From the NCBI GenBank assembly GCA_016929465.1, contig JAFGIT010000069.1, positions 1 through 10,408 on the forward strand: a DNA stretch of 10,408 bases, given 5' to 3'. The position numbers and the translations under genes are program-made. Below the pieces are notes generated by a model. It ran no database searches. It had not been told where the DNA came from and worked only from the letters and a program-made list of their open reading frames with translations. Positions 1-10,241 of this stretch are shown here, piece after piece; within the stretch, counting starts at the first letter, position 1; each line of letters starts with the position of its first letter. The DNA comes from JAFGIT01 sp016929465 [NCBI: Candidatus Coatesbacteria bacterium] (lineage in GTDB: Bacteria > B130-G9).

Positions 1-768
1 GTCAGATGGGTAATCCCCGACAAGACCGAACCCCCTCGCGTGACCAAAGTCTCTATGCTACTTCAGGAGCAGTTCCTGAATTCGCCTCCGGTCGCGATCC
101 AGCAGATCAAGAAGGCCATTTTGCACATGTTCGTGCGGGCCTATGAGATGTTGGGCCACATAAAGGATGATATCTCGAATGATAACAACGAGAAGAAAGA
201 TGAGATAATCAAGCTGGAGGATGAACTCGATCGCCATCAGGCGGAGATCACTGAGTACATAAGCCTCGTTATGCACAAGGGCGTCTCCGTGTCCGACAGC
301 GAAACGCTAACTCACCTCCTTCACGCGGTCAACGACGTCGAGAATATCGGGGATTCTGTGGAGAGCACCTCGAATCTCCTTCAGCGCCTGGCAAAACTCG
401 GCCAGAAATTCTCCCCCGCAGCAAAAAGCGATATCATCGAGATGGTGACGCTCGTCGCCTCGATGGTTGATGATTCGATTCGCGCTCTCGAGCACGAGAG
501 CAGGCGAACTGCGATGAGCGCGATTGAGAAGGAAGCGCGAATCGACGAGATGAAGCGGAAATTCCGCAAGCGGAATAGGGATAGATATGTTGCGTATAAG
601 CGCGGTGAGAGCACAACAGAGGAAAAACTCTGGGGCCAGGTCATCTCCAATGATGTAATCTCTAATATGGAAAAGATTGCCGATAATGCTGAGAACGTTC
701 TCGAGGCTTATAAACTCGCTGCAGAGAGCAAACCCACGGATCAATGGGTGAGAGATCATGAGGCTTAG
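1..768 (+). CDS. Na+/phosphate cotransporter, C-terminal PhoU-like domain (5'-truncated by window edge)
   Basis: The frame is open from base 1, so this is the 3' end of a longer gene. A GTG at 40 is available but is unlikely to be the true start. The visible 255 residues are soluble and highly charged, made of long helices, and fit the PhoU-like tail that follows the membrane part of bacterial Na/Pi cotransporters (Na_Pi_cotrans/NptA family). The entry segment VIPDKTEPPRV followed by LLQEQFLNSPPVAIQQ is typical of the junction between the last membrane segment and this tail ('LN-PPVA' motif). Later stretches such as DVENIGDSVES and MEKIADNAENVLEA are PhoU-type helices with conserved Asp/Glu and Asn. 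The protein would import or export phosphate with sodium at the inner membrane, the tail being cytoplasmic. Its stop overlaps the next gene by 11 bases. A free-standing PhoU/DUF47 protein starting at 40 is possible but less likely because the upstream frame is open. Confidence 0.82.
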   Translation, partial: VRWVIPDKTEPPRVTKVSMLLQEQFLNSPPVAIQQIKKAILHMFVRAYEMLGHIKDDISNDNNEKKDEIIKLEDELDRHQAEITEYISLVMHKGVSVSDSETLTHLLHAVNDVENIGDSVESTSNLLQRLAKLGQKFSPAAKSDIIEMVTLVASMVDDSIRALEHESRRTAMSAIEKEARIDEMKRKFRKRNRDRYVAYKRGESTTEEKLWGQVISNDVISNMEKIADNAENVLEAYKLAAESKPTDQWVRDHEA

Positions 769-2012: not shown

Positions 2013-2048
2013 CCCATTAAATCGCCGTCGATGCGGCGCAAATTGCTT

Positions 2049-2053
2049 GGAGG
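2049..2053 (+). promoter_or_regulatory. ribosome binding site that decides the rph start
   Basis: GGAGG lies 10 bases before a TTG at 2064. The in-frame ATG at 2031 has no Shine-Dalgarno before it and would add 11 residues not expected for RNase PH, whose N-terminus normally begins a few residues before the GR(x)n-E-x-RP motif. This favours TTG 2064 as the start. Confidence 0.6.
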
Positions 2054-2063
2054 TTTCCTTGTT

Positions 2064-2801
2064 TTGAGGGCAAATGGTAGGAAGAATAATGAGATTCGCC
2101 CGGTAGAGATTGAGCGGGCATTTGCGAAGTATGCAGAGGGTTCTGCCTTAATCACGATGGGTAATACGAAGGTCTTGTGCACAGCCACGGTCAGAGAAGA
2201 ACTGCCGCAGTGGCTCCGTGGATCTGGACAGGGATGGATCACCAGCGAGTATGGGATGCTGCCCCGCTCTTCACCAAATAGGATACCCAGGGAGGCAAGC
2301 AGGGGCAGAATCACTGGTCGAACGCACGAAATACAGCGTCTGATCGGTCGGTCTCTGCGGGCAGTTGTCGATCTCACTATGATAAAGGACAGGACTATAT
2401 GGCTCGATTGTGACGTCATACAGGCTGATGGTGGAACGAGAACAGCCTCTGTTACTGCGAGCTTCGTCGCGCTCTGCGATGCGCTGACCTGGCTCGGTGG
2501 GGCGGACCAGGGATTGCCGTGCCTCTCAGGATTTGTGGCGGCGACAAGTGTTGGAATTGTATCCGATGAGCTTCTGCTCGATCTCGATTACTCTGAGGAT
2601 TCGACAGCAGCGGTCGATATGAATATTGTGATGACGGACACTGGCAAGTTCATCGAGATTCAGGGGACCGCCGAGGCCCAGCCTTTCGGGCAGGACTCGC
2701 TGACAGAGCTGATTTCGCTGGGCAATCACGGGATATCACAGCTGGTTGAGATTCAGCGTCGGGTTCTTGGTGATGTGTCCCATCTGATGGCGGGATATTA
2801 G
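2064..2801 (+). CDS. rph: ribonuclease PH
   Basis: RNase PH is a phosphate-dependent 3'-5' exoribonuclease that trims tRNA 3' ends and degrades structured RNA, working as a hexameric ring in the cytoplasm. The protein shows the family motifs in order: ANGRKNNEIRPVEIE at the N-terminus, GWITSEYGMLPRSS, then REASRGRITGRTHEIQRL (substrate-arginine region), IGRSLRAVVDL, LDCDVIQADGGTRTAS (phosphate-binding GGTRTA), LDLDYSEDSTAAVDMNIVM with the catalytic/metal aspartates, and IEIQGTAEAQPF. With the TTG start at 2064 the product is 245 residues, the usual family length; starting at ATG 2031 gives 256. It follows lipM by 51 bases and may share its transcript, which ends at the terminator just after the stop. 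No rdgB follows it, unlike the arrangement in many bacteria. The family assignment is very secure; only the start is open. Confidence 0.95.
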   Translation: MRANGRKNNEIRPVEIERAFAKYAEGSALITMGNTKVLCTATVREELPQWLRGSGQGWITSEYGMLPRSSPNRIPREASRGRITGRTHEIQRLIGRSLRAVVDLTMIKDRTIWLDCDVIQADGGTRTASVTASFVALCDALTWLGGADQGLPCLSGFVAATSVGIVSDELLLDLDYSEDSTAAVDMNIVMTDTGKFIEIQGTAEAQPFGQDSLTELISLGNHGISQLVEIQRRVLGDVSHLMAGY

Positions 2802-2903: not shown

Positions 2904-3146
2904 ATGTCGCAAGTCTGTGAAATATGTGGCAAGAAGCCGATGTCCGGGCATAATATCAGCCACGCGCACAATGTAACCAACCGTCGTTGGCTTCCCAACC
3001 TCCAGACGGTCCGCACCAACGTGAACGGCCATGTCAAGCGAGTCAAGGTCTGCACAAGCTGCCTGAAAGCCGGGAAGGTAGAAAAGTTCGTCAAGTCCGC
3101 CACCCAAAAGCAGTTAAGACCCTCGGCCGAGGAATCGAAGAGCTAA
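2904..3146 (+). CDS. rpmB: 50S ribosomal protein L28, zinc-binding form
   Basis: This 80-residue basic protein is large-subunit ribosomal protein L28. It has the L28 opening [20 protein letters not shown], then [11 protein letters not shown] and a [13 protein letters not shown] end. Two Cys pairs, Cys5/Cys8 and Cys50/Cys53, form the zinc ribbon of the C+ (zinc-containing) form of L28. The C-terminal 15 residues after Val64 are polar and probably disordered. A strong AAGGAG at 2890-2895 sits 8 bases before ATG 2904. An out-of-frame ATG at 2899 is ignored. The gene follows the rph terminator, so it probably has its own promoter in the 100-base gap, although no clear -35/-10 pair is visible. There is no terminator between it and the next gene 45 bases downstream, so it may head the transcript for the signalling and sugar genes. 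Confidence 0.96.
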
Positions 3147-3191: not shown

Positions 3192-5075
3192 GTGGAGCAG
3201 AATTCCTCGATCCTCGTTGTTGAGGATTCGGCCGGGCTAAGGGAGAATCTCGTCCAGACTCTCTCTATGGGCGGCTACTCGGTGCAGGCGGCCGATAACG
3301 GCCACTCCGCGCTTGAGATTCTCGAGACTGAGTCCTTCGATGTCATAATCACTGATATCAGGATGCCCGGAATGGACGGCCTTGCGCTCCTGGATCAGGT
3401 TCTGGCCATGGACGGGAAGCCCGAGACCGCTGTCATTTTGATGACGGCCTATATGACAATTGAATCGGCTGTGTCGTCCCTGAAGAAGGGGGCGTACGAC
3501 TACATCACAAAGCCCTTCAAAATCGAGCAGCTTCTGCACACCGTCGAGACTGTAATAGACAAGCGGAGGCTTAAGCTCGAGAATGTCCGGCTGAACAACG
3601 AGCTCAAAGAGCTCAACAGGGAGCTCGAGGAGAAGGTCAGGCTTCGAACGAAGCAGCTCCAGGAGTCTCAGAATGAGCTGCAGGAGAATTACCTGCAGGT
3701 TATCAAGTCATTCGCGGTCGTTCTCGAGGAAAGAGACGCGTACACACAAGGTCATTCCTCTCGTGTCACCGAGTACTCGGTCCGGATTGCGAACGAGATG
3801 GGACTTCCCGAGGGTCAGATAATCGCTCTTCAGATTGGTGGGAATCTGCACGATATCGGCAAGATCGGAATCCCCGAGGAGGTTCTTAGAAAACCGACCA
3901 GGCTGACAGATGATGAGTGGCGCGTTATGCGTGAGCATCCTATCAAAGGTGCACGCATGGTCGAGCCGCTGAGCTTCCTCTCGAAGGAGAGGATACTCAT
4001 CAAACATCACCATGAGCGCTGGGATGGCAGAGGCTATCCCGACGGCCTCGCCGGGGAAGAGATACCGCTGCTCTCCAGGATACTCTGCGTTGCGGATTCA
4101 TTCGACGCAATGACCTCGACGAGAAGCTATCGAAGGCGGATGGCGCTTGCCACGGCCATAGCCCAGATCGAAGAGAACAGGGGCACACAGTTCGATCCCA
4201 GAATCGTTGACGTGTTCATGAATTGCCTGAAGGAATTCGGGATTATAACCTCGATGGACTGCGTAATTCTCGCCGCCGGTAAGGGCAAGCGCATGAACAG
4301 CGATCGCCCGAAAGTACTCACCCAATTGCGCGGCAGACCCTTGCTGGGCTATGTTCTCGATCTGATGGCGAAGTTTGGGATGCACAAGACCTATATAGTC
4401 GTCGGCCATGGCGCCAATGAGGTCAAGGAATTCGTCCAAAGCACTTATTTGCAGGGAACCACCAATAATTGGTTCAGTGCCCACAGCCGGGCGCATCGCG
4501 AGGAATTAATCGAGTTCGTCCAGCAGAAGGAACAACTCGGCACAGCTCACGCTGTCGCGCAAGTCCTGCCACATCTGGTCCCCTCCAGAAATAGCATGCT
4601 GATTTTGAGTGGCGATGTCCCGCTGCTCAGCTTCAATACCATCAATAAATTGATCGACGAGCAGATGAGAACCGATGCAGGTCTGGTTCTTGCGACCGCT
4701 GACCTCGATGACCCGGGTTCTCTGGGCAGAATAGTCCGCAACGAAGAGGGCGAGCTAAAAGCGATCGTAGAGGCCTGCGAAGCTAGTGAAGAGGAACTGG
4801 CGATCAAGGAGATCAATGTCGGCGCATATTGCCTGTCTGGCGACCGTCGCTTTCTCGATTTCTTGGGCAAGGTCGAGAATGACAACTCCCAGGGCGAGTA
4901 TTACCTCACAGACGCAATCCGGCTATTCATGGAAAAAGGCAACCGAGTGCGTCTCTGCAAGATCGCTGATAGCCGTGAATCGCTCGGTATCAATACTATC
5001 CAGGACCTCGAAAGGGCAGAGAAATACATCGATGGGATAAACCTCTCAGCTCCCCTCGGCACCAATTTTCCCTAA
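3192..5075 (+). CDS. three-part fusion: response regulator receiver + HD-GYP phosphodiesterase + GlmU-type uridylyltransferase
   Basis: The 627-residue protein reads through three domains. Receiver (about 6-120): acidic pair Glu11/Asp12, phospho-acceptor Asp55 in TDIRMPGMDG, Thr85 and Lys107 in YITKPF. A charged coiled-coil linker runs from about 125 to 165. HD-GYP domain (about 168-350): His188, HD pair His220/Asp221 in LHDIGKIG, HHERWDGRGYP (273-283) and DSFDAMTS (302-309). All expected metal ligands and the GYP signature are present, so c-di-GMP hydrolysis is likely. Uridylyltransferase (about 355-612): LAAGKGKRM (360-368), PKVL with Lys374, EQLGTAHAV (447-455), SGDVPL with Asp475, GRIVRNEEG, KEINVG with Asn542, and NDNSQGEYYLTD (563-574). 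These match the N-terminal half of GlmU, which makes UDP-GlcNAc from UTP and GlcNAc-1-P. No left-handed helix acetyltransferase follows. The start is GTG with AGGGGGAG close before it. An in-frame ATG at 4254 begins the third domain exactly, so a separate product is possible; GAAGGA at 4229-4234 is 19 bases away, too far for a good ribosome site. Substrate sugar is inferred. Confidence 0.9.
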   Translation: MEQNSSILVVEDSAGLRENLVQTLSMGGYSVQAADNGHSALEILETESFDVIITDIRMPGMDGLALLDQVLAMDGKPETAVILMTAYMTIESAVSSLKKGAYDYITKPFKIEQLLHTVETVIDKRRLKLENVRLNNELKELNRELEEKVRLRTKQLQESQNELQENYLQVIKSFAVVLEERDAYTQGHSSRVTEYSVRIANEMGLPEGQIIALQIGGNLHDIGKIGIPEEVLRKPTRLTDDEWRVMREHPIKGARMVEPLSFLSKERILIKHHHERWDGRGYPDGLAGEEIPLLSRILCVADSFDAMTSTRSYRRRMALATAIAQIEENRGTQFDPRIVDVFMNCLKEFGIITSMDCVILAAGKGKRMNSDRPKVLTQLRGRPLLGYVLDLMAKFGMHKTYIVVGHGANEVKEFVQSTYLQGTTNNWFSAHSRAHREELIEFVQQKEQLGTAHAVAQVLPHLVPSRNSMLILSGDVPLLSFNTINKLIDEQMRTDAGLVLATADLDDPGSLGRIVRNEEGELKAIVEACEASEEELAIKEINVGAYCLSGDRRFLDFLGKVENDNSQGEYYLTDAIRLFMEKGNRVRLCKIADSRESLGINTIQDLERAEKYIDGINLSAPLGTNFP

Positions 5076-5095: not shown

Positions 5096-7318
5096 ATGCG
5101 AATCCAGGGAACCGACGGAATACGTAGGCCGACCTCACCGGATAATGCAGCTCGCGTCAAGGGTCTGAGCCCGCTCGATGCATTTCTGAAAGGAGGACTC
5201 ATCACCCCCTCCTTCATGGAGCTTTACGCTTATTCATTCCTAACCGACCTCTCGAGGCTCGAGAGAATAAGTCCGGGCGAATCCGTCGTCGTCGGCTGGG
5301 ACCCCAGGGATCCGAAAGGCGAATTCATCGAGGCCTTCGTCAGCGGCATTCGCAAGGCTGGAGCAAGTGTATTGTCACTCGGGATCATCCCAACCCCAGC
5401 GGTTCCAGCCTACATGCTCCGAGCCGGCGCTGCAGGCGGCGCGATGATCACGGCCTCCCACAACCTGAAGGACCAGAATGGCGTCAAGCTCTTCTGGAAG
5501 GAGCAAGGCCTGAAATACCTGCCCCAGGATGATGTCCGCCTGACGAGAGTAATACTCGAACTCGCGAAGAGCACCGATCTCCGCGAAATCGCCCCAGCCG
5601 GCGAGGTCATCGACCGCCATGAGGATGCCTCGTCGATGTTCAAGAGCTTCATGCTCGATCCGACGAACAGCTGGCTTGAGCCCGGTAGCATGCAGGAGCT
5701 CGACCTCGACAGGATCGATCTCGTTGTTGACACGGCCAACGGCTGTTTAAGTAAATTTGCCGGCAATTTATTCAGGAATTGGGGCTTCACCAATGTCCAC
5801 GAGGTCAACACCAGCCTCGCGGGCGACGTCAATGAGGGTGGAGGAGTTGCAGCACTGGAGGGGACCGAGATCATTTCGAGAGCGGACGTCTTCGCAACTG
5901 AGGGCGGATCGGGTTCCCCGTTCTCGGAGCACCAGGCCGTGCTGCAGATGTTTCGCCTCGCGGATGAGCGCAGGCAGGAATTCCTCTCGGGGACGAGGCT
6001 TCTCGTCGCTGCTGTGTTCGACGCTGACGGAGACCGCTTCTTTAGGCTCGATTACTCTCCTCACAAAGATGCACTGATTGTGACATCGGGAGATGAGGCG
6101 GCATTCCTCCAGGCGAAATACCTCGTGGAGTCTCGATCGGTCTCAGGAAGACCGCGAATCGTGCACACCGTTGAGAGCGACATAAACGTCGGTGCTTTCG
6201 CTGACGAATCTCTCGGAGTAAGCCCGGTGATGACAGCGGTGGGGGATAAGTGGGTGTTATATGAAGCTTTCGCGGCGCTCATCGAAGGCAGGCTTGAGCT
6301 ATTGAAGAGGACCCTCGCCGAACTCGATAGGGAAGATGCCATCAAGGAGCTCGAATCGGCTGACAGGAAGCTCGCATCAATTCGATCCCAGCGATCTAGC
6401 GATAGCCAGGACTATTTCGACCTCGAGAATGAAGTAGAAACAGTGCAGTCCAAGCATCTCTCTCCAGATCAGATCATCGAGCTCGAAAAGGCTCTGCTCG
6501 AACAGGGGGCAATCCCCTACTTGATGGGATTTGAGGAGACCGGCCATTCCATAGCGCCGGCCATCCTCGAATTCAGTTCGACAGCCAACTGCCAACTGCC
6601 AACTGCCAACCGGTTATTCTTCGCCGGCAACGGCTTGAAGGCGGCCATCAACACATTCGTGGCGACACAGACGGCTCTGAAATCAATGGACGTCGAGGCT
6701 TTCCACGAGATGATGGAGGCCCCATTCCCGCGCGGCTTCAAGAGGACCTTCTACGCCTACTACACGCGGAAGGAGGAATTCGCCTTCGGCACGGACTACT
6801 GGCACGAGCTCGCCCTGTGGTTGGAATATGCTTGTCAGACCCGCTTTGGCGCGGAGTTCGACGTCAGGAGGAAGGAATTCGCCGAGGAGCTGGACATGGT
6901 CTTCATTTCACTGTCACAGAAAGGTAGCTCGATGACGGCGGCATCTGTGTTCGTCCGCAATTCGGGGACCGAGGAGAAGACAGGTGTGAATGTGAGGGGA
7001 CCTAAGAGCCTGGCAGCTTCGCTCGATGCGGTGGGCGACCTTGCAAGGCGGAGGCTTCAGACCACCTTGAAAGACCCGAGCAGCGAATATGCAAAGGCCG
7101 AGACGAGAACACTGCGCGAGATGATAGAACTCGAACGGCAAGGCAAGGCCCTTTCCGTCGGTCTGGCCGTTTCCCTATTGAATGAGAGGCATCCTGATGT
7201 TGTGCCCGAGCGGCTGTTGCTGGAGATGTTCAAGCAGGATCTAATTACACTGGAATCGCTGACCGCATCTGCCGCGCCTCTAAAGACGACCGACCTCGGA
7301 CGCTGGCTCGCCGGCTAA
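5096..7318 (+). CDS. oversized phosphohexomutase (PGM/PMM/GlmM superfamily) with coiled-coil insertion and C-terminal extension
   Basis: The enzyme would interconvert hexose-6-phosphate and hexose-1-phosphate. Signatures in order: IQGTDGIRR (3-11), catalytic serine loop ITASHNLKDQNGVKLF with Ser121, metal loop FDADGDR (308-314), TAVGDKWV (380-387), sugar-binding loop GFEETGHS (478-485) and phosphate-binding loop RNSGTEE (621-627). At 740 residues it is far longer than the usual 445-480. About 75 extra residues (393-468), charged and helical with coiled-coil character, separate the VGDKWV and EETGH segments, which normally lie close together. Another 100 residues after the phosphate loop form an extra helical tail. 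The EETGH loop is closer to PMM/PGM (E-E/M-S-G-H) than to GlmM (E-N-S-G-H), so the substrate is uncertain. The gene starts 20 bases after the fusion gene (weak GAGAAG 5 bases before ATG), so the two are probably co-translated. It may feed sugar-1-phosphate to the uridylyltransferase. A 7-bp tandem repeat lies within the frame. Confidence 0.87.
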   Translation: MRIQGTDGIRRPTSPDNAARVKGLSPLDAFLKGGLITPSFMELYAYSFLTDLSRLERISPGESVVVGWDPRDPKGEFIEAFVSGIRKAGASVLSLGIIPTPAVPAYMLRAGAAGGAMITASHNLKDQNGVKLFWKEQGLKYLPQDDVRLTRVILELAKSTDLREIAPAGEVIDRHEDASSMFKSFMLDPTNSWLEPGSMQELDLDRIDLVVDTANGCLSKFAGNLFRNWGFTNVHEVNTSLAGDVNEGGGVAALEGTEIISRADVFATEGGSGSPFSEHQAVLQMFRLADERRQEFLSGTRLLVAAVFDADGDRFFRLDYSPHKDALIVTSGDEAAFLQAKYLVESRSVSGRPRIVHTVESDINVGAFADESLGVSPVMTAVGDKWVLYEAFAALIEGRLELLKRTLAELDREDAIKELESADRKLASIRSQRSSDSQDYFDLENEVETVQSKHLSPDQIIELEKALLEQGAIPYLMGFEETGHSIAPAILEFSSTANCQLPTANRLFFAGNGLKAAINTFVATQTALKSMDVEAFHEMMEAPFPRGFKRTFYAYYTRKEEFAFGTDYWHELALWLEYACQTRFGAEFDVRRKEFAEELDMVFISLSQKGSSMTAASVFVRNSGTEEKTGVNVRGPKSLAASLDAVGDLARRRLQTTLKDPSSEYAKAETRTLREMIELERQGKALSVGLAVSLLNERHPDVVPERLLLEMFKQDLITLESLTASAAPLKTTDLGRWLAG
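6584..6610 (+). repeat. heptanucleotide tandem repeat inside the mutase gene
   Basis: Three full copies and six bases of a fourth copy of GCCAACT, without mismatch. It encodes about residues 497-505 (ANCQLPTAN) in a loop between the sugar-binding motif GFEETGHS and the FAGNGLKAA segment. Three units equal 21 bases, so gain or loss of a single unit would shift the frame. Confidence 0.9.
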
Positions 7319-8070: not shown

Positions 8071-8216
8071 TGCCTTTGGAGTGGACTTCGCGTTTCGCAT
8101 TCGGCTCGCCCGGCCTGGAAATGAGATGGGGATTCCGCCCCACTTGTATTTTGCATGTGTTTGCAGGATGCTAATCCGCCTTTTGTCAGTTGATTTTCAA
8201 ATTACAGATCATTTGT

Positions 8217-8228
8217 GGAGGGGAGGAG
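8217..8228 (+). promoter_or_regulatory. ribosome binding site deciding the beta-helix gene start
   Basis: The purine run GGAGGGGAGGAG ends 3 bases before ATG 8232, with GGGAGG placed 5 bases away. An upstream in-frame TTG at 8190 has no such site and would put 14 polar residues in front of the signal peptide, so ATG 8232 is preferred. Confidence 0.75.
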
Positions 8229-8231
8229 ACC

Positions 8232-10241
8232 ATGCCTTCGTCTGCTATATACTGGAGATGTGCCTGTTACATTGCTCTCGCAATCTCTCTTTCTTGCTTT
8301 GCACCCCTTATATCGAACGGGGAGCCATTCATTGTTGCTTACACAGACGGTGATTCCTATCAGCTTGGTGACACACTCAGTGCGAGTCTGTCTGGTGGGA
8401 ACACGTCCGCCGGGGGCATGTCGGTAGCGGTTTATGCTGGCTTTCTGACGCCAGATGGAGTTGTCTATACCGCCCACTACGATGGCTGGCGGACGTCGAT
8501 CGAGCCGTGGATATCGGATATCTTTGTCCCCCAGGATTTCATGCTCGACAGGACAGTCTTCTGGTCGCTTGATCTCCCATGCGATTCGCCGCAGATCCGG
8601 GAAGACGGGCTCTATTGCTTTGTGGCTGCCCTTGCCAGGTCGCAGACTGCGGATTGGCTCTCCATAAGCTACGCGCCATTCAACGTCGGAAGCTCTGCTC
8701 CGTCGGATTTCTATGTCAACGCGGAGACCGGCGATAACGCGAATGATGGCTCTGAAGCAGCTCCGTGGAGGACGATAACTCACGCCCTGGAGTCAGTGAG
8801 TGGCAGCGAGGCGTCGCCGATTACTATCCATGTCATGTCAGGTGAGTATTCCGCATCATCGAACGGTGAGACATACCCCTTGAACATGAAAAGCTGGGTC
8901 TCTATTTGTGGTGAGGGCGCGGAGTCAACGGTCCTTGACGCTGAAGATGCAGCGTATCATGTGATTTACTGCGACGGTGTTCACGATCTGACGATCGAGG
9001 GAATGACGATTAAGGGCGGAAAGGCTGACGGATCCGGGATATTCGACCAGATAGGAGCGGGGATTCTCCTTGTTCGGCTGAGTTCACCTTTGATAAGGGA
9101 CAACCTGCTATTAGAGAATGAATCGGTCGGGAGCGGCGGGGCCATCTATTCCTCGGACTGTTCGATGACTATTGAGAGCAATACATTGAGAAGGAATGTC
9201 GCCAGCGGCAGTGGCGGCGCCATTTTCTGCTATTTGGGATCACCCGAGATACTGAACAACACGTGCACGGGGAACACGGCTTCATATAGCGGCGGAGCTG
9301 TCTGCTGCTTCTTGAGCTCGCCGACGATCGTCGGGAATACGGTCGCGAATAATCGGGCGGAGGGCGAGCTCTTCGCCGGGGGTGGCATCTATTGCCAGGA
9401 TTGCACCGGCTCAATCAGAGATAACGCGGTCATCCAGAACATCTCATTCGATTCAGGAGGCGGGATCGCCTGGTGGGGAACCGGCGCGGTCGAATTCCGG
9501 GGGAATACGATCTCGGACAATGTGTCCAATGGCCGGGGCGGCGGATTATACTTAAATGGCGCGGTATCGGTTCTCGTGACGGACAATGTGATCGAGAACA
9601 ACAGCGCGGACGACGTGGGAGGGGGCATTTTCTGCGATGGGACCTCGGCGACAATCCAGGCGAACACAATCTCGGGCAATTCGACAAGCGGCGCCGGTGG
9701 CGGAATAATGCTCTGGGGGCTTTCAGGGCCATTTTCAATCGATAACAACACGCTCGAATACAACACGGCAGCAGCCTCCGGCGGCGGAATCTTCTGCCTG
9801 GAAAGCTACGGCGCGCTGACCCAAAACACGATAGCCAACAACACCTGCCCCTCCGACGGCGCGGGCGTCTCCTGCCACGGGGGACTTGTGAACATCGAAC
9901 ACAACAGAATCGAAAGCAATGCAACGTCGGCCGGATTCGGTGAGGGAGGCGGCGGAATCTCCCTGAATAGCTGCTCTCCCACTATCCAGAACAACACCAT
10001 CATTTACAACGAGGCCTTCGCGTCCGGCGGCGGAATCTTCGTCTCCTGGTTCAGCTCACCCGTAATTCAGAAGAATGAGATAAGCTACAACCACGCCGCC
10101 TACGGAGGCGCGATATTCGTGGACTTGACCAGCACCCCAGCAATCGAGGACAATACCATGACAGGCAATCTTGCCGACAACGAGGGGCCTGATGTGTATT
10201 ATGAGACGCCGCCCGAAGAGGACCTCACTAAAGACGACTGA
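8232..10241 (+). CDS. secreted DUF1565 / right-handed parallel beta-helix protein
   Basis: From ATG 8232 the product is 669 residues. Residues 1-30 form a signal peptide: Arg9, then the hydrophobic run CACYIALAISLSCFAPLI. There is no proper lipobox, so export without lipidation is likely. Residues about 32-155 form a distinct N-terminal domain (YQLGDTLSASLSGGN, VAVYAGFLTPDGVVY, GWRTSIEPW, FWSLDLPC, YAPFNVG) that I do not recognise. DUF1565 begins at FYVNAETGDNANDG (160-173), continues with APWRTITHAL (177-186), MSGEY and VSICGEG. From about 300 to 650 come 13 beta-helix rungs with a GG(G/A)I motif and an N-T/N-x-I asparagine motif each. Such folds bind or cut polysaccharides, or serve as surface or phage-like adhesins. 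I see no clear catalytic triad, so enzyme activity is unproven. The tail YYETPPEEDLTKDD is acidic, with no anchor or sorting signal. No co-transcribed partner is visible. Confidence 0.88.
   Translation: MPSSAIYWRCACYIALAISLSCFAPLISNGEPFIVAYTDGDSYQLGDTLSASLSGGNTSAGGMSVAVYAGFLTPDGVVYTAHYDGWRTSIEPWISDIFVPQDFMLDRTVFWSLDLPCDSPQIREDGLYCFVAALARSQTADWLSISYAPFNVGSSAPSDFYVNAETGDNANDGSEAAPWRTITHALESVSGSEASPITIHVMSGEYSASSNGETYPLNMKSWVSICGEGAESTVLDAEDAAYHVIYCDGVHDLTIEGMTIKGGKADGSGIFDQIGAGILLVRLSSPLIRDNLLLENESVGSGGAIYSSDCSMTIESNTLRRNVASGSGGAIFCYLGSPEILNNTCTGNTASYSGGAVCCFLSSPTIVGNTVANNRAEGELFAGGGIYCQDCTGSIRDNAVIQNISFDSGGGIAWWGTGAVEFRGNTISDNVSNGRGGGLYLNGAVSVLVTDNVIENNSADDVGGGIFCDGTSATIQANTISGNSTSGAGGGIMLWGLSGPFSIDNNTLEYNTAAASGGGIFCLESYGALTQNTIANNTCPSDGAGVSCHGGLVNIEHNRIESNATSAGFGEGGGGISLNSCSPTIQNNTIIYNEAFASGGGIFVSWFSSPVIQKNEISYNHAAYGGAIFVDLTSTPAIEDNTMTGNLADNEGPDVYYETPPEEDLTKDD
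9135..10181 (+). repeat. 13 beta-helix coding repeats, period about 26 codons
   Basis: The first Gly of each GG-x-[IVL] motif falls at residues 302, 328, 354, 383, 409, 436, 463, 489, 517, 543, 573, 599 and 625 (numbered from ATG 8232; the tenth is GAGV). The steps are 25-30 residues, most often 26, about 78 bases. The units are diverged in DNA sequence, so this is an old protein repeat rather than a recent DNA tandem array. Confidence 0.85.

What the first reader, a model, noticed from the sequence alone, without database searches (positions are those of the whole stretch)
3192..5075. c-di-GMP phosphodiesterase response regulator fused to a GlmU-type uridylyltransferase
One uninterrupted frame encodes REC (Asp55, Lys107), HD-GYP (HD 220-221, HHERWDGRGYP 273-283) and a complete GlmU N-terminal domain (LAAGKGKRM, EQLGTAHAV, NSQGEYYLTD). 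All three have intact key residues, so each may be active. REC-HD-GYP proteins are common (RpfG type), but I know of no described member carrying a sugar nucleotidyltransferase. This would directly join phospho-signalling and c-di-GMP turnover to sugar-nucleotide synthesis. Domain order is seen; the coupling is inference.
Basis: partly seen in the sequence, partly recalled or inferred. Interest (0 to 1): 0.8.

Follow-up and report, generated by a model that had tools for sequence, protein, structure and literature searches.

The report
Signalling enzyme fused to cell-wall enzyme
In a little-known group of uncultured sediment bacteria, one protein joins a switch that probably destroys the signal molecule c-di-GMP to an enzyme that probably makes UDP-GlcNAc, a building block of the cell wall, so the two may be controlled together.

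Summary
One 627-codon frame (3192-5075) encodes a receiver (REC), an HD-GYP domain and the uridylyltransferase half of GlmU, without GlmU's acetyltransferase half. The same chain is in 4 of 4 held genomes of its phylum (GTDB B130-G9 by inference; one family, three genera). Its junction is conserved as protein while silent sites are saturated. No full-length match appeared in 382 other genomes (a capped search).

The GlmU half keeps the catalytic residues checked and is the only strong GlmU match in these genomes. A GlmS-linked, archaeal-type GlmU-like protein lost the signature Arg and a presumed catalytic His in all four. The next gene is a long GlmM-like mutase; elsewhere its relatives often sit beside GlmS, acetyltransferase or GlmU-N genes, and once it is fused to GlmU-N. 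So the fusion is probably the UDP-GlcNAc pyrophosphorylase of a split GlmU pathway.

The HD-GYP half keeps 10 of 11 residues tested in the phosphodiesterase PmGH; Tyr replaces one metal ligand, as in the predicted two-metal subfamily. All four genomes encode GGDEF domains.

Both activities, and any control of one half by the other, are inferred. My paper searches found no description. New variant of known kinds; moderately high interest.

The parts
3192..5075 (+). fusion gene, REC - HD-GYP - GlmU N-terminal domain, 627 aa
   Evidence: open frame, Pfam and NCBIfam, conserved in 4 of 4 phylum genomes
3210..3545 (+). receiver domain (residues 7-118); E11, D12, D55, T85, K107 invariant in 4 of 4
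   Evidence: Pfam Response_reg 105.3 bits
3546..3686 (+). linker (residues 119-165), helical, signalling-helix-like by inspection
   Evidence: sequence and a low-confidence helix 111-184 in a failed model; weak
3714..4205 (+). HD-GYP domain (residues 175-338); H188, H220, D221, K224, H249, H273, H274, D302, D305, with D182 just before the Pfam boundary region; Tyr184 in place of PmGH Glu185
   Evidence: Pfam HD_5 146 bits; PDB alignment
4206..4256 (+). junction (residues 339-355), no linker domain; Met355 is where a separate GlmU would begin
   Evidence: protein-level conservation with saturated silent sites
4257..5030 (+). GlmU uridylyltransferase domain (residues 356-613)
   Evidence: TIGR01173 positions 2-236; the 17 best PDB sequences of 21 matched are GlmU; residues
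5096..7318 (+). long GlmM-like phosphohexomutase gene, 20 bases downstream; TASHN and SGTEE motifs present (motif meaning recalled)
   Evidence: Pfam PGM_PMM_I and III; adjacent in 4 of 4
2904..3146 (+). rpmB (ribosomal protein L28), just upstream
   Evidence: Pfam and NCBIfam; 4 of 4
2031..2801 (+). rph (ribonuclease PH), upstream
   Evidence: NCBIfam over cut-off; 4 of 4

Best explanation
A single-chain signalling and metabolic enzyme. The C-terminal domain is the organism's UDP-GlcNAc pyrophosphorylase (UTP + GlcNAc-1-P to UDP-GlcNAc + PPi), working with the neighbouring GlmM-like mutase, GlmS and a separate hexapeptide acetyltransferase in a split GlmU pathway. The N-terminal part is a response regulator whose HD-GYP domain hydrolyses c-di-GMP. 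Shown by sequence: architecture, conservation, intact sites, loss of key residues in the second GlmU-like protein, and gene links to the pathway. Inferred: both catalytic activities, dimerisation through the linker helix, and that receiver phosphorylation lowers c-di-GMP where and when UDP-GlcNAc is made, for example steering it to peptidoglycan rather than to c-di-GMP-activated exopolysaccharide. My estimates: real phylum-wide fusion 0.98; UDP-GlcNAc pyrophosphorylase 0.85; active c-di-GMP phosphodiesterase 0.7; regulatory coupling between the halves 0.35.
For: Fusion in 4 of 4 phylum genomes, protein-conserved junction. GlmU half: only strong GlmU match per genome (213-218 bits; next best 70.4), catalytic residues invariant, nearest PDB sequences are GlmU. 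The Arch_glmU-like rival has lost the GxGxR Arg and the aligned His in 4 of 4. Outside the phylum, G008 and G035 have a GlmU or GlmU-N gene directly upstream of such a degenerate gene and glmS. The mutase is adjacent in 4 of 4, fused to GlmU-N in G044, followed by GlmU-N in G189, and beside a GlmS or acetyltransferase homologue in 9 of the 20 loci outside the phylum. MurA in 3 of 4 genomes. HD-GYP: 10 of 11 PmGH residues; GGDEF in 4 of 4 genomes.
Against: No activity measured. The degenerate proteins of G001, G002 and G003 still pass the NCBIfam Arch_glmU cut-off, so a curated model would name them bifunctional enzymes. PmGH Glu185 is Tyr here. The REC-HD-GYP part scores below the curated cut-off of NCBIfam's NosR phosphodiesterase model (291.5 against 400). 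G050 has the degenerate gene, glmS and an acetyltransferase-like gene but no GlmU match at E 1e-12. 9 of 20 mutase loci outside the phylum show no pathway neighbour. All genomes are drafts. Nothing shows coupling.
Confidence: 0.62

Rival explanations
1. Neutral operon fusion: the stop codon between a regulator gene and a standalone glmU-N was lost. Both halves work independently, sharing only expression and stoichiometry, with no allostery.
For: Almost no linker between the domains and a Met exactly where GlmU would begin. GlmU-N is found elsewhere as a separate gene and fused to a different partner, the mutase in G044, so it seems to be a freely moving domain. No coupling is shown.
Against: The fusion and its junction are kept across three genera although silent sites are saturated; that shows age and selection on the chain, not coupling.
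Confidence: 0.4
2. The HD-GYP domain hardly hydrolyses c-di-GMP and serves as a sensor: binding of c-di-GMP, or of another cyclic dinucleotide, tunes the uridylyltransferase.
For: Tyr184 replaces a metal ligand of PmGH; some HD-GYP proteins of Vibrio cholerae were inactive although activity could not be predicted from residues (PMC4212101, passages); the phosphodiesterase NosR model is below cut-off.
Against: The other 10 residues important in PmGH are invariant in 4 of 4, and the best PDB match, the cyclic-dinucleotide phosphodiesterase 5z7c, also has Tyr there.
Confidence: 0.2
3. The uridylyltransferase half uses another sugar phosphate, and UDP-GlcNAc is made by the GlmS-linked Arch_glmU-like protein.
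For: That protein lies directly upstream of glmS in G001 and G002 and passes the Arch_glmU cut-off in 3 of 4 genomes.
Against: It lacks the GxGxR Arg and the aligned His in 4 of 4, and the fusion has the GlmU-type residues with GlmU as nearest PDB relatives.
Confidence: 0.12
4. Two products: besides the fusion, GlmU-N is made separately from Met355 by an internal start (or by cleavage).
For: Met355 is invariant in 4 of 4 and sits where GlmU proteins begin.
Against: By eye no Shine-Dalgarno-like sequence is conserved upstream in the four, and the surrounding codons vary at silent sites while the amino acids are kept.
Confidence: 0.08
5. Assembly or sequencing artefact joining two genes.
For: All genomes are drafts of metagenomes; the window is one 10.4-kb contig.
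Against: The same join occurs in 4 of 4 genomes at 70-72% protein identity, in records with different names and accession series.
Confidence: 0.01

Closest known systems
REC-HD-GYP response-regulator phosphodiesterases (RpfG and TM0186 type)
   Same: Receiver followed by HD-GYP; matches elsewhere cover residues about 5-350 at up to 45% identity among the listed rows.
   Different: Carries a uridylyltransferase domain at the C-terminus; PmGH Glu185 is Tyr184 (Y/F subfamily of PMC4159591, passages).
PmGH of Persephonella marina (PDB 4mcw), HD-GYP c-di-GMP phosphodiesterase
   Same: 10 of 11 metal-ligand or otherwise essential residues conserved.
   Different: GAF instead of REC partner, Glu185 present and three irons in PmGH; no GlmU domain.
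Bifunctional GlmU (TIGR01173)
   Same: Whole uridylyltransferase half, model positions 2-236, with the residues checked.
   Different: No left-handed beta-helix acetyltransferase half; score under the curated cut-off; N-terminal REC-HD-GYP.
Standalone GlmU-N genes (for example G008:C25) and the GlmM-like/GlmU-N fusion of G044
   Same: The same domain, with links to the same pathway genes.
   Different: No signalling domains; in G044 the partner is the long mutase.
c-di-GMP effects on UDP-GlcNAc genes in Salmonella (PMC10100716, passages)
   Same: Links c-di-GMP to UDP-GlcNAc supply.
   Different: Transcriptional and indirect there, with a rise of glmS and glmU mRNA under high c-di-GMP; covalent here.

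Membership tests
REC-HD-GYP response regulator | Receiver with acidic pair, phosphoacceptor Asp, Thr and Lys | tested here: met
   E11, D12, D55, T85, K107 in 4 of 4; Pfam 105.3 bits
REC-HD-GYP response regulator | HD-GYP domain with HD pair, GYP motif and metal ligands | tested here: met
   Pfam HD_5 146 bits; HD 220-221, GYP 281-283; 7 of 8 PmGH metal ligands, the eighth (Glu185) is Tyr
REC-HD-GYP response regulator | NCBIfam NosR-family response-regulator phosphodiesterase model NF053512 over its cut-off | tested here: not met
   291.5 bits against 400; so not filed as NosR family
REC-HD-GYP response regulator | c-di-GMP phosphodiesterase activity | not testable with these tools
   needs an enzyme assay
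Bifunctional GlmU | Uridylyltransferase domain with intact catalytic residues | tested here: met
   residues invariant in 4 of 4, roles recalled; model positions 2-236
Bifunctional GlmU | C-terminal beta-helix acetyltransferase domain | tested here: not met
   protein ends 14 residues after the first domain; no hexapeptide family matched
Bifunctional GlmU | TIGR01173 score over curated cut-off | tested here: not met
   217.7 against 366.85 bits
UDP-GlcNAc pyrophosphorylase (function) | Pathway context (GlmM, GlmS, acetyltransferase) | tested here: met
   GlmM-like gene adjacent in 4 of 4; GlmS seen in G001 and G002; acetyltransferase-like protein in 3 of 4
UDP-GlcNAc pyrophosphorylase (function) | Activity on UTP and GlcNAc-1-P | not testable with these tools
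   needs an enzyme assay or complementation

The most novel reading that the evidence does not exclude
A second messenger directly gates the supply of the central cell-wall precursor inside one polypeptide: receiver phosphorylation and c-di-GMP binding or hydrolysis in the HD-GYP domain allosterically set UDP-GlcNAc synthesis, throughout a bacterial phylum.
Probability: 0.3. Interest if true: 0.85.

Novelty: new variant of a known kind. Interest (0 to 1): 0.62.

Why it matters
c-di-GMP is known to act on polysaccharide synthases and on transcription (general knowledge); the one link to GlmU that my searches turned up is transcriptional, higher glmS and glmU expression under high c-di-GMP in Salmonella (PMC10100716, passages). 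A covalent link between a response-regulator phosphodiesterase and the probable UDP-GlcNAc pyrophosphorylase would make direct signal control of cell-wall precursor supply testable in one purified protein. It also shows that GlmU-N is a mobile module: fused to HD-GYP here, to a GlmM-like mutase in G044.

Tried and rejected
Assembly or frameshift artefact: rejected. Similar fusions elsewhere: 386 genomes searched with the whole fusion (3 candidates scored per genome, rows only to E 1e-60) gave full-length matches in the 4 phylum members only. A 60-genome search (up to 21 candidates scored in most, listing truncated) shows none beyond those 4 in the rows printed. A scan of all ORFs of 90 aa or more in the loci then held found both halves in one ORF only in loci of those 4 genomes; it included the 78 other loci, and among all loci only L044 held a GlmU-like and a REC/HD-GYP-like ORF side by side. 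The peptide patterns came from the HD-GYP end and the junction, so that scan favours HD-GYP hits.

L044 (G034): the upstream ORF ends like an NtrC-type regulator and matches by its receiver, in my reading; not an HD-GYP neighbour.

Structure prediction with 3 sequences failed (mean pLDDT 43.3, pTM 0.26); no fold search was run. The GlmU tree (30 rows, the short G034 row left out) groups the four fusions (100/100) but does not place them (21 of 27 inner branches open). The UDPGP search (PF01704) found nothing in 4 genomes, but its controls rang nowhere either, so it proves nothing. PilZ was not searched. G000 has no MurA match, perhaps through incompleteness. My own first ORF extraction for the Arch_glmU set picked wrong frames for many rows and was replaced, which used 22 of the 30 loci. 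Paper searches for GlmU Arg18 and ST0452 His308 found nothing, so those residue roles are recalled. For one search (13 papers) I saw titles and abstract starts only.

Full report
What is there. Window 3192-5075 (+) is one open frame of 627 codons with a GTG start preceded by AGGGGGAG. Pfam finds Response_reg (7-118), HD_5 (175-338) and NTP_transf_3 (357-503), all above gathering scores. NCBIfam finds the first half of GlmU at residues 356-613 and reports nothing for the second half.

Is it real and conserved? The window is a whole contig (C190) of an 86%-complete draft genome. The same fusion lies in all 4 genomes held of this phylum, one family and three genera, at 70-72% identity. The isolate name matches GTDB phylum B130-G9, 'Candidatus Cuxufiota' in PMC11382960 (one passage seen), listed with 3 genomes of 2.27-3.43 Mb and 53.9-56.2% GC; the window has 54.7% GC. 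The phylum name is therefore an inference.

Selection. In the five pairwise comparisons other than the close pair G001/G003, nonsynonymous distances are 0.08-0.16 (REC), 0.12-0.13 (HD-GYP), 0.16-0.33 (junction) and 0.28-0.36 (GlmU), against synonymous distances above 1 or saturated in these four regions. The junction GI(I/V)T(S/N)MDC is kept as protein while its silent sites are saturated, and by eye no ribosome-binding site is conserved before Met355. The 14-residue tail after the GlmU domain is not conserved.

Distribution. Searching 386 genomes with the whole fusion gave full-length matches in the 4 phylum members only. The other matches listed (E up to 1e-60) end between residues 336 and 398 of the query (3 candidates scored per genome). 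A scan of ORFs in all loci then held gave the same answer. A fusion in a genome that was not sampled, or hidden by the candidate cap, is not excluded.

Active sites. REC: E11, D12, D55, T85, K107 in 4 of 4. HD-GYP against PmGH (PMC4159591, passages; alignment): the equivalents of H189, H221, D222, H250, H276, H277, D305, D183, K225 and D308 are invariant; that of E185 is Tyr184 in 4 of 4, which the paper associates with a subfamily expected to hold two metals. In that paper E185A still hydrolysed c-di-GMP, though less well. The best PDB match, 5z7c, a cyclic-dinucleotide phosphodiesterase, also has Tyr there. The domain is below the cut-off of the NCBIfam NosR model. GlmU: R367, K374, Q445, Q448, G450, T451, D475, G512, E527, N542, T573 and N601 are invariant in 4 of 4; their roles are recalled from E. 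coli GlmU. Of 21 PDB sequences matched, the 17 best are GlmU.

Which enzyme makes UDP-GlcNAc here? In each of the 4 genomes the fusion is the only strong GlmU match: 213-218 bits, next best 70.4. A second candidate is an Arch_glmU-type protein of about 400 aa, directly upstream of glmS in G001 and G002; in G000 and G003 the contig ends before glmS could be seen (GlmS of G001 confirmed). It passes the Arch_glmU cut-off in G001, G002 and G003 but not in G000, where it is cut by the contig end. Yet in 4 of 4 its GxGxR motif has lost the Arg (N, N, N, G), and the His aligned with the presumed catalytic His of Sulfolobus ST0452 (position recalled; alignment) is Arg. Relatives from G008, G035, G044 and G050 show the same losses, so 8 of 8; G047 keeps both residues; 13 of 13 lower-scoring homologues, RmlA-like in my reading, keep the Arg (22 of the 30 loci). 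In G008 a 250-aa GlmU-N gene and in G035 a 349-aa GlmU-type gene lie directly upstream of the degenerate gene, followed by glmS. Against this pattern, G050 has the degenerate gene and glmS but no GlmU match at E 1e-12. A separate hexapeptide protein that keeps the His was seen in 3 of the 4 phylum genomes; for G003 none was among the rows listed. MurA is present in 3 of 4, not in G000.

The neighbouring mutase. The gene 20 bases downstream (740 aa) is a long relative of GlmM, far under the GlmM cut-off (100.3 against 447.55 bits). Its start is adjacent to the fusion in 4 of 4, although two contigs end inside it. Each of the 4 genomes also has a second, ordinary phosphohexomutase (partial in G003), typed in G000 as PgmG-like, below cut-off, so the mutase step has another candidate. 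The long mutase was found in 24 of 372 genomes, the 4 of the phylum and 20 others in 13 families (2 candidates scored per genome). In G044 it is fused to GlmU-N in one 960-aa chain, and in G189 GlmU-N follows it directly. Of the 20 loci outside the phylum, 6 have a GlmS homologue and 9 (including those 6) an acetyltransferase homologue beside it, 2 have GlmU-N, and 9 have none of these in the fetched flanks. So the fusion's GlmU half and this mutase most likely belong to UDP-GlcNAc synthesis with a split GlmU.

How it may work. GGDEF domains occur in 4 of 4 genomes, so c-di-GMP is probably made. The likely picture is a dimer held by the linker helix, receiver phosphorylation adjusting the HD-GYP domain, and the attached uridylyltransferase making UDP-GlcNAc. 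Whether the halves affect each other is not shown, and a neutral fusion remains nearly as likely as a coupled one. The gene follows rph and rpmB in 4 of 4, which suggests expression with growth genes (inference).

Literature. HD-GYP with GlmU gave 2 papers; one was seen in passages (PMC10100716), the other in the listing only. HD-GYP with uridylyltransferase gave 13 (listing only); HD-GYP with domain architecture, nucleotidyltransferase and response regulator 3 (listing only); c-di-GMP with UDP-GlcNAc, phosphodiesterase and GlmU 1, again PMC10100716. Nothing seen there describes this fusion. The library lacks most subscription papers and all preprints, and sequence databases of domain architectures were not available.

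Limits. All four phylum genomes are drafts (83-95% complete by the tool's figures). The whole-genome searches cap the candidates scored. The structure prediction failed. No biochemical result exists.

Noticed in passing
L177:2814-3893, L178:2012-3235, L179:1933-3129, L180:3313-4509; also L219, L221, L223, L224: A GlmS-linked Arch_glmU-like protein, present in the 4 phylum genomes and in G008, G035, G044 and G050, has lost both the nucleotidyltransferase Arg and the aligned acetyltransferase His in 8 of 8 yet is kept; where the contig allows it lies upstream of glmS. It may be a pseudoenzyme regulating GlmS.
   Followed up: partly
L247:2645-5524 (G044): A 960-aa chain fusing the long GlmM-like mutase to GlmU-N, another fusion of the same uridylyltransferase.
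   Followed up: partly
window 5096-7318: GlmM-like protein of 740 aa (782 aa in G001), much longer than ordinary GlmM, with only PGM_PMM domains I and III recognised; found in 24 of 372 genomes.
   Followed up: partly
window 40-768: PhoU-domain ORF at the contig start; in G001 the gene in this place encodes Na/Pi-cotransporter plus PhoU domains (about 604 aa), so the window copy is probably cut by the contig end.
   Followed up: no
window 8190-10241: Predicted beta-helix protein (NosD, DUF1565 and Chlamydia PMP-type repeats), 683 aa, with many GG-type repeats.
   Followed up: no
L044:1-2691 (G034): An NtrC-like response regulator gene directly precedes a glmU whose matches fall in two frames, so either a frameshift or a sequencing error there.
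   Followed up: no
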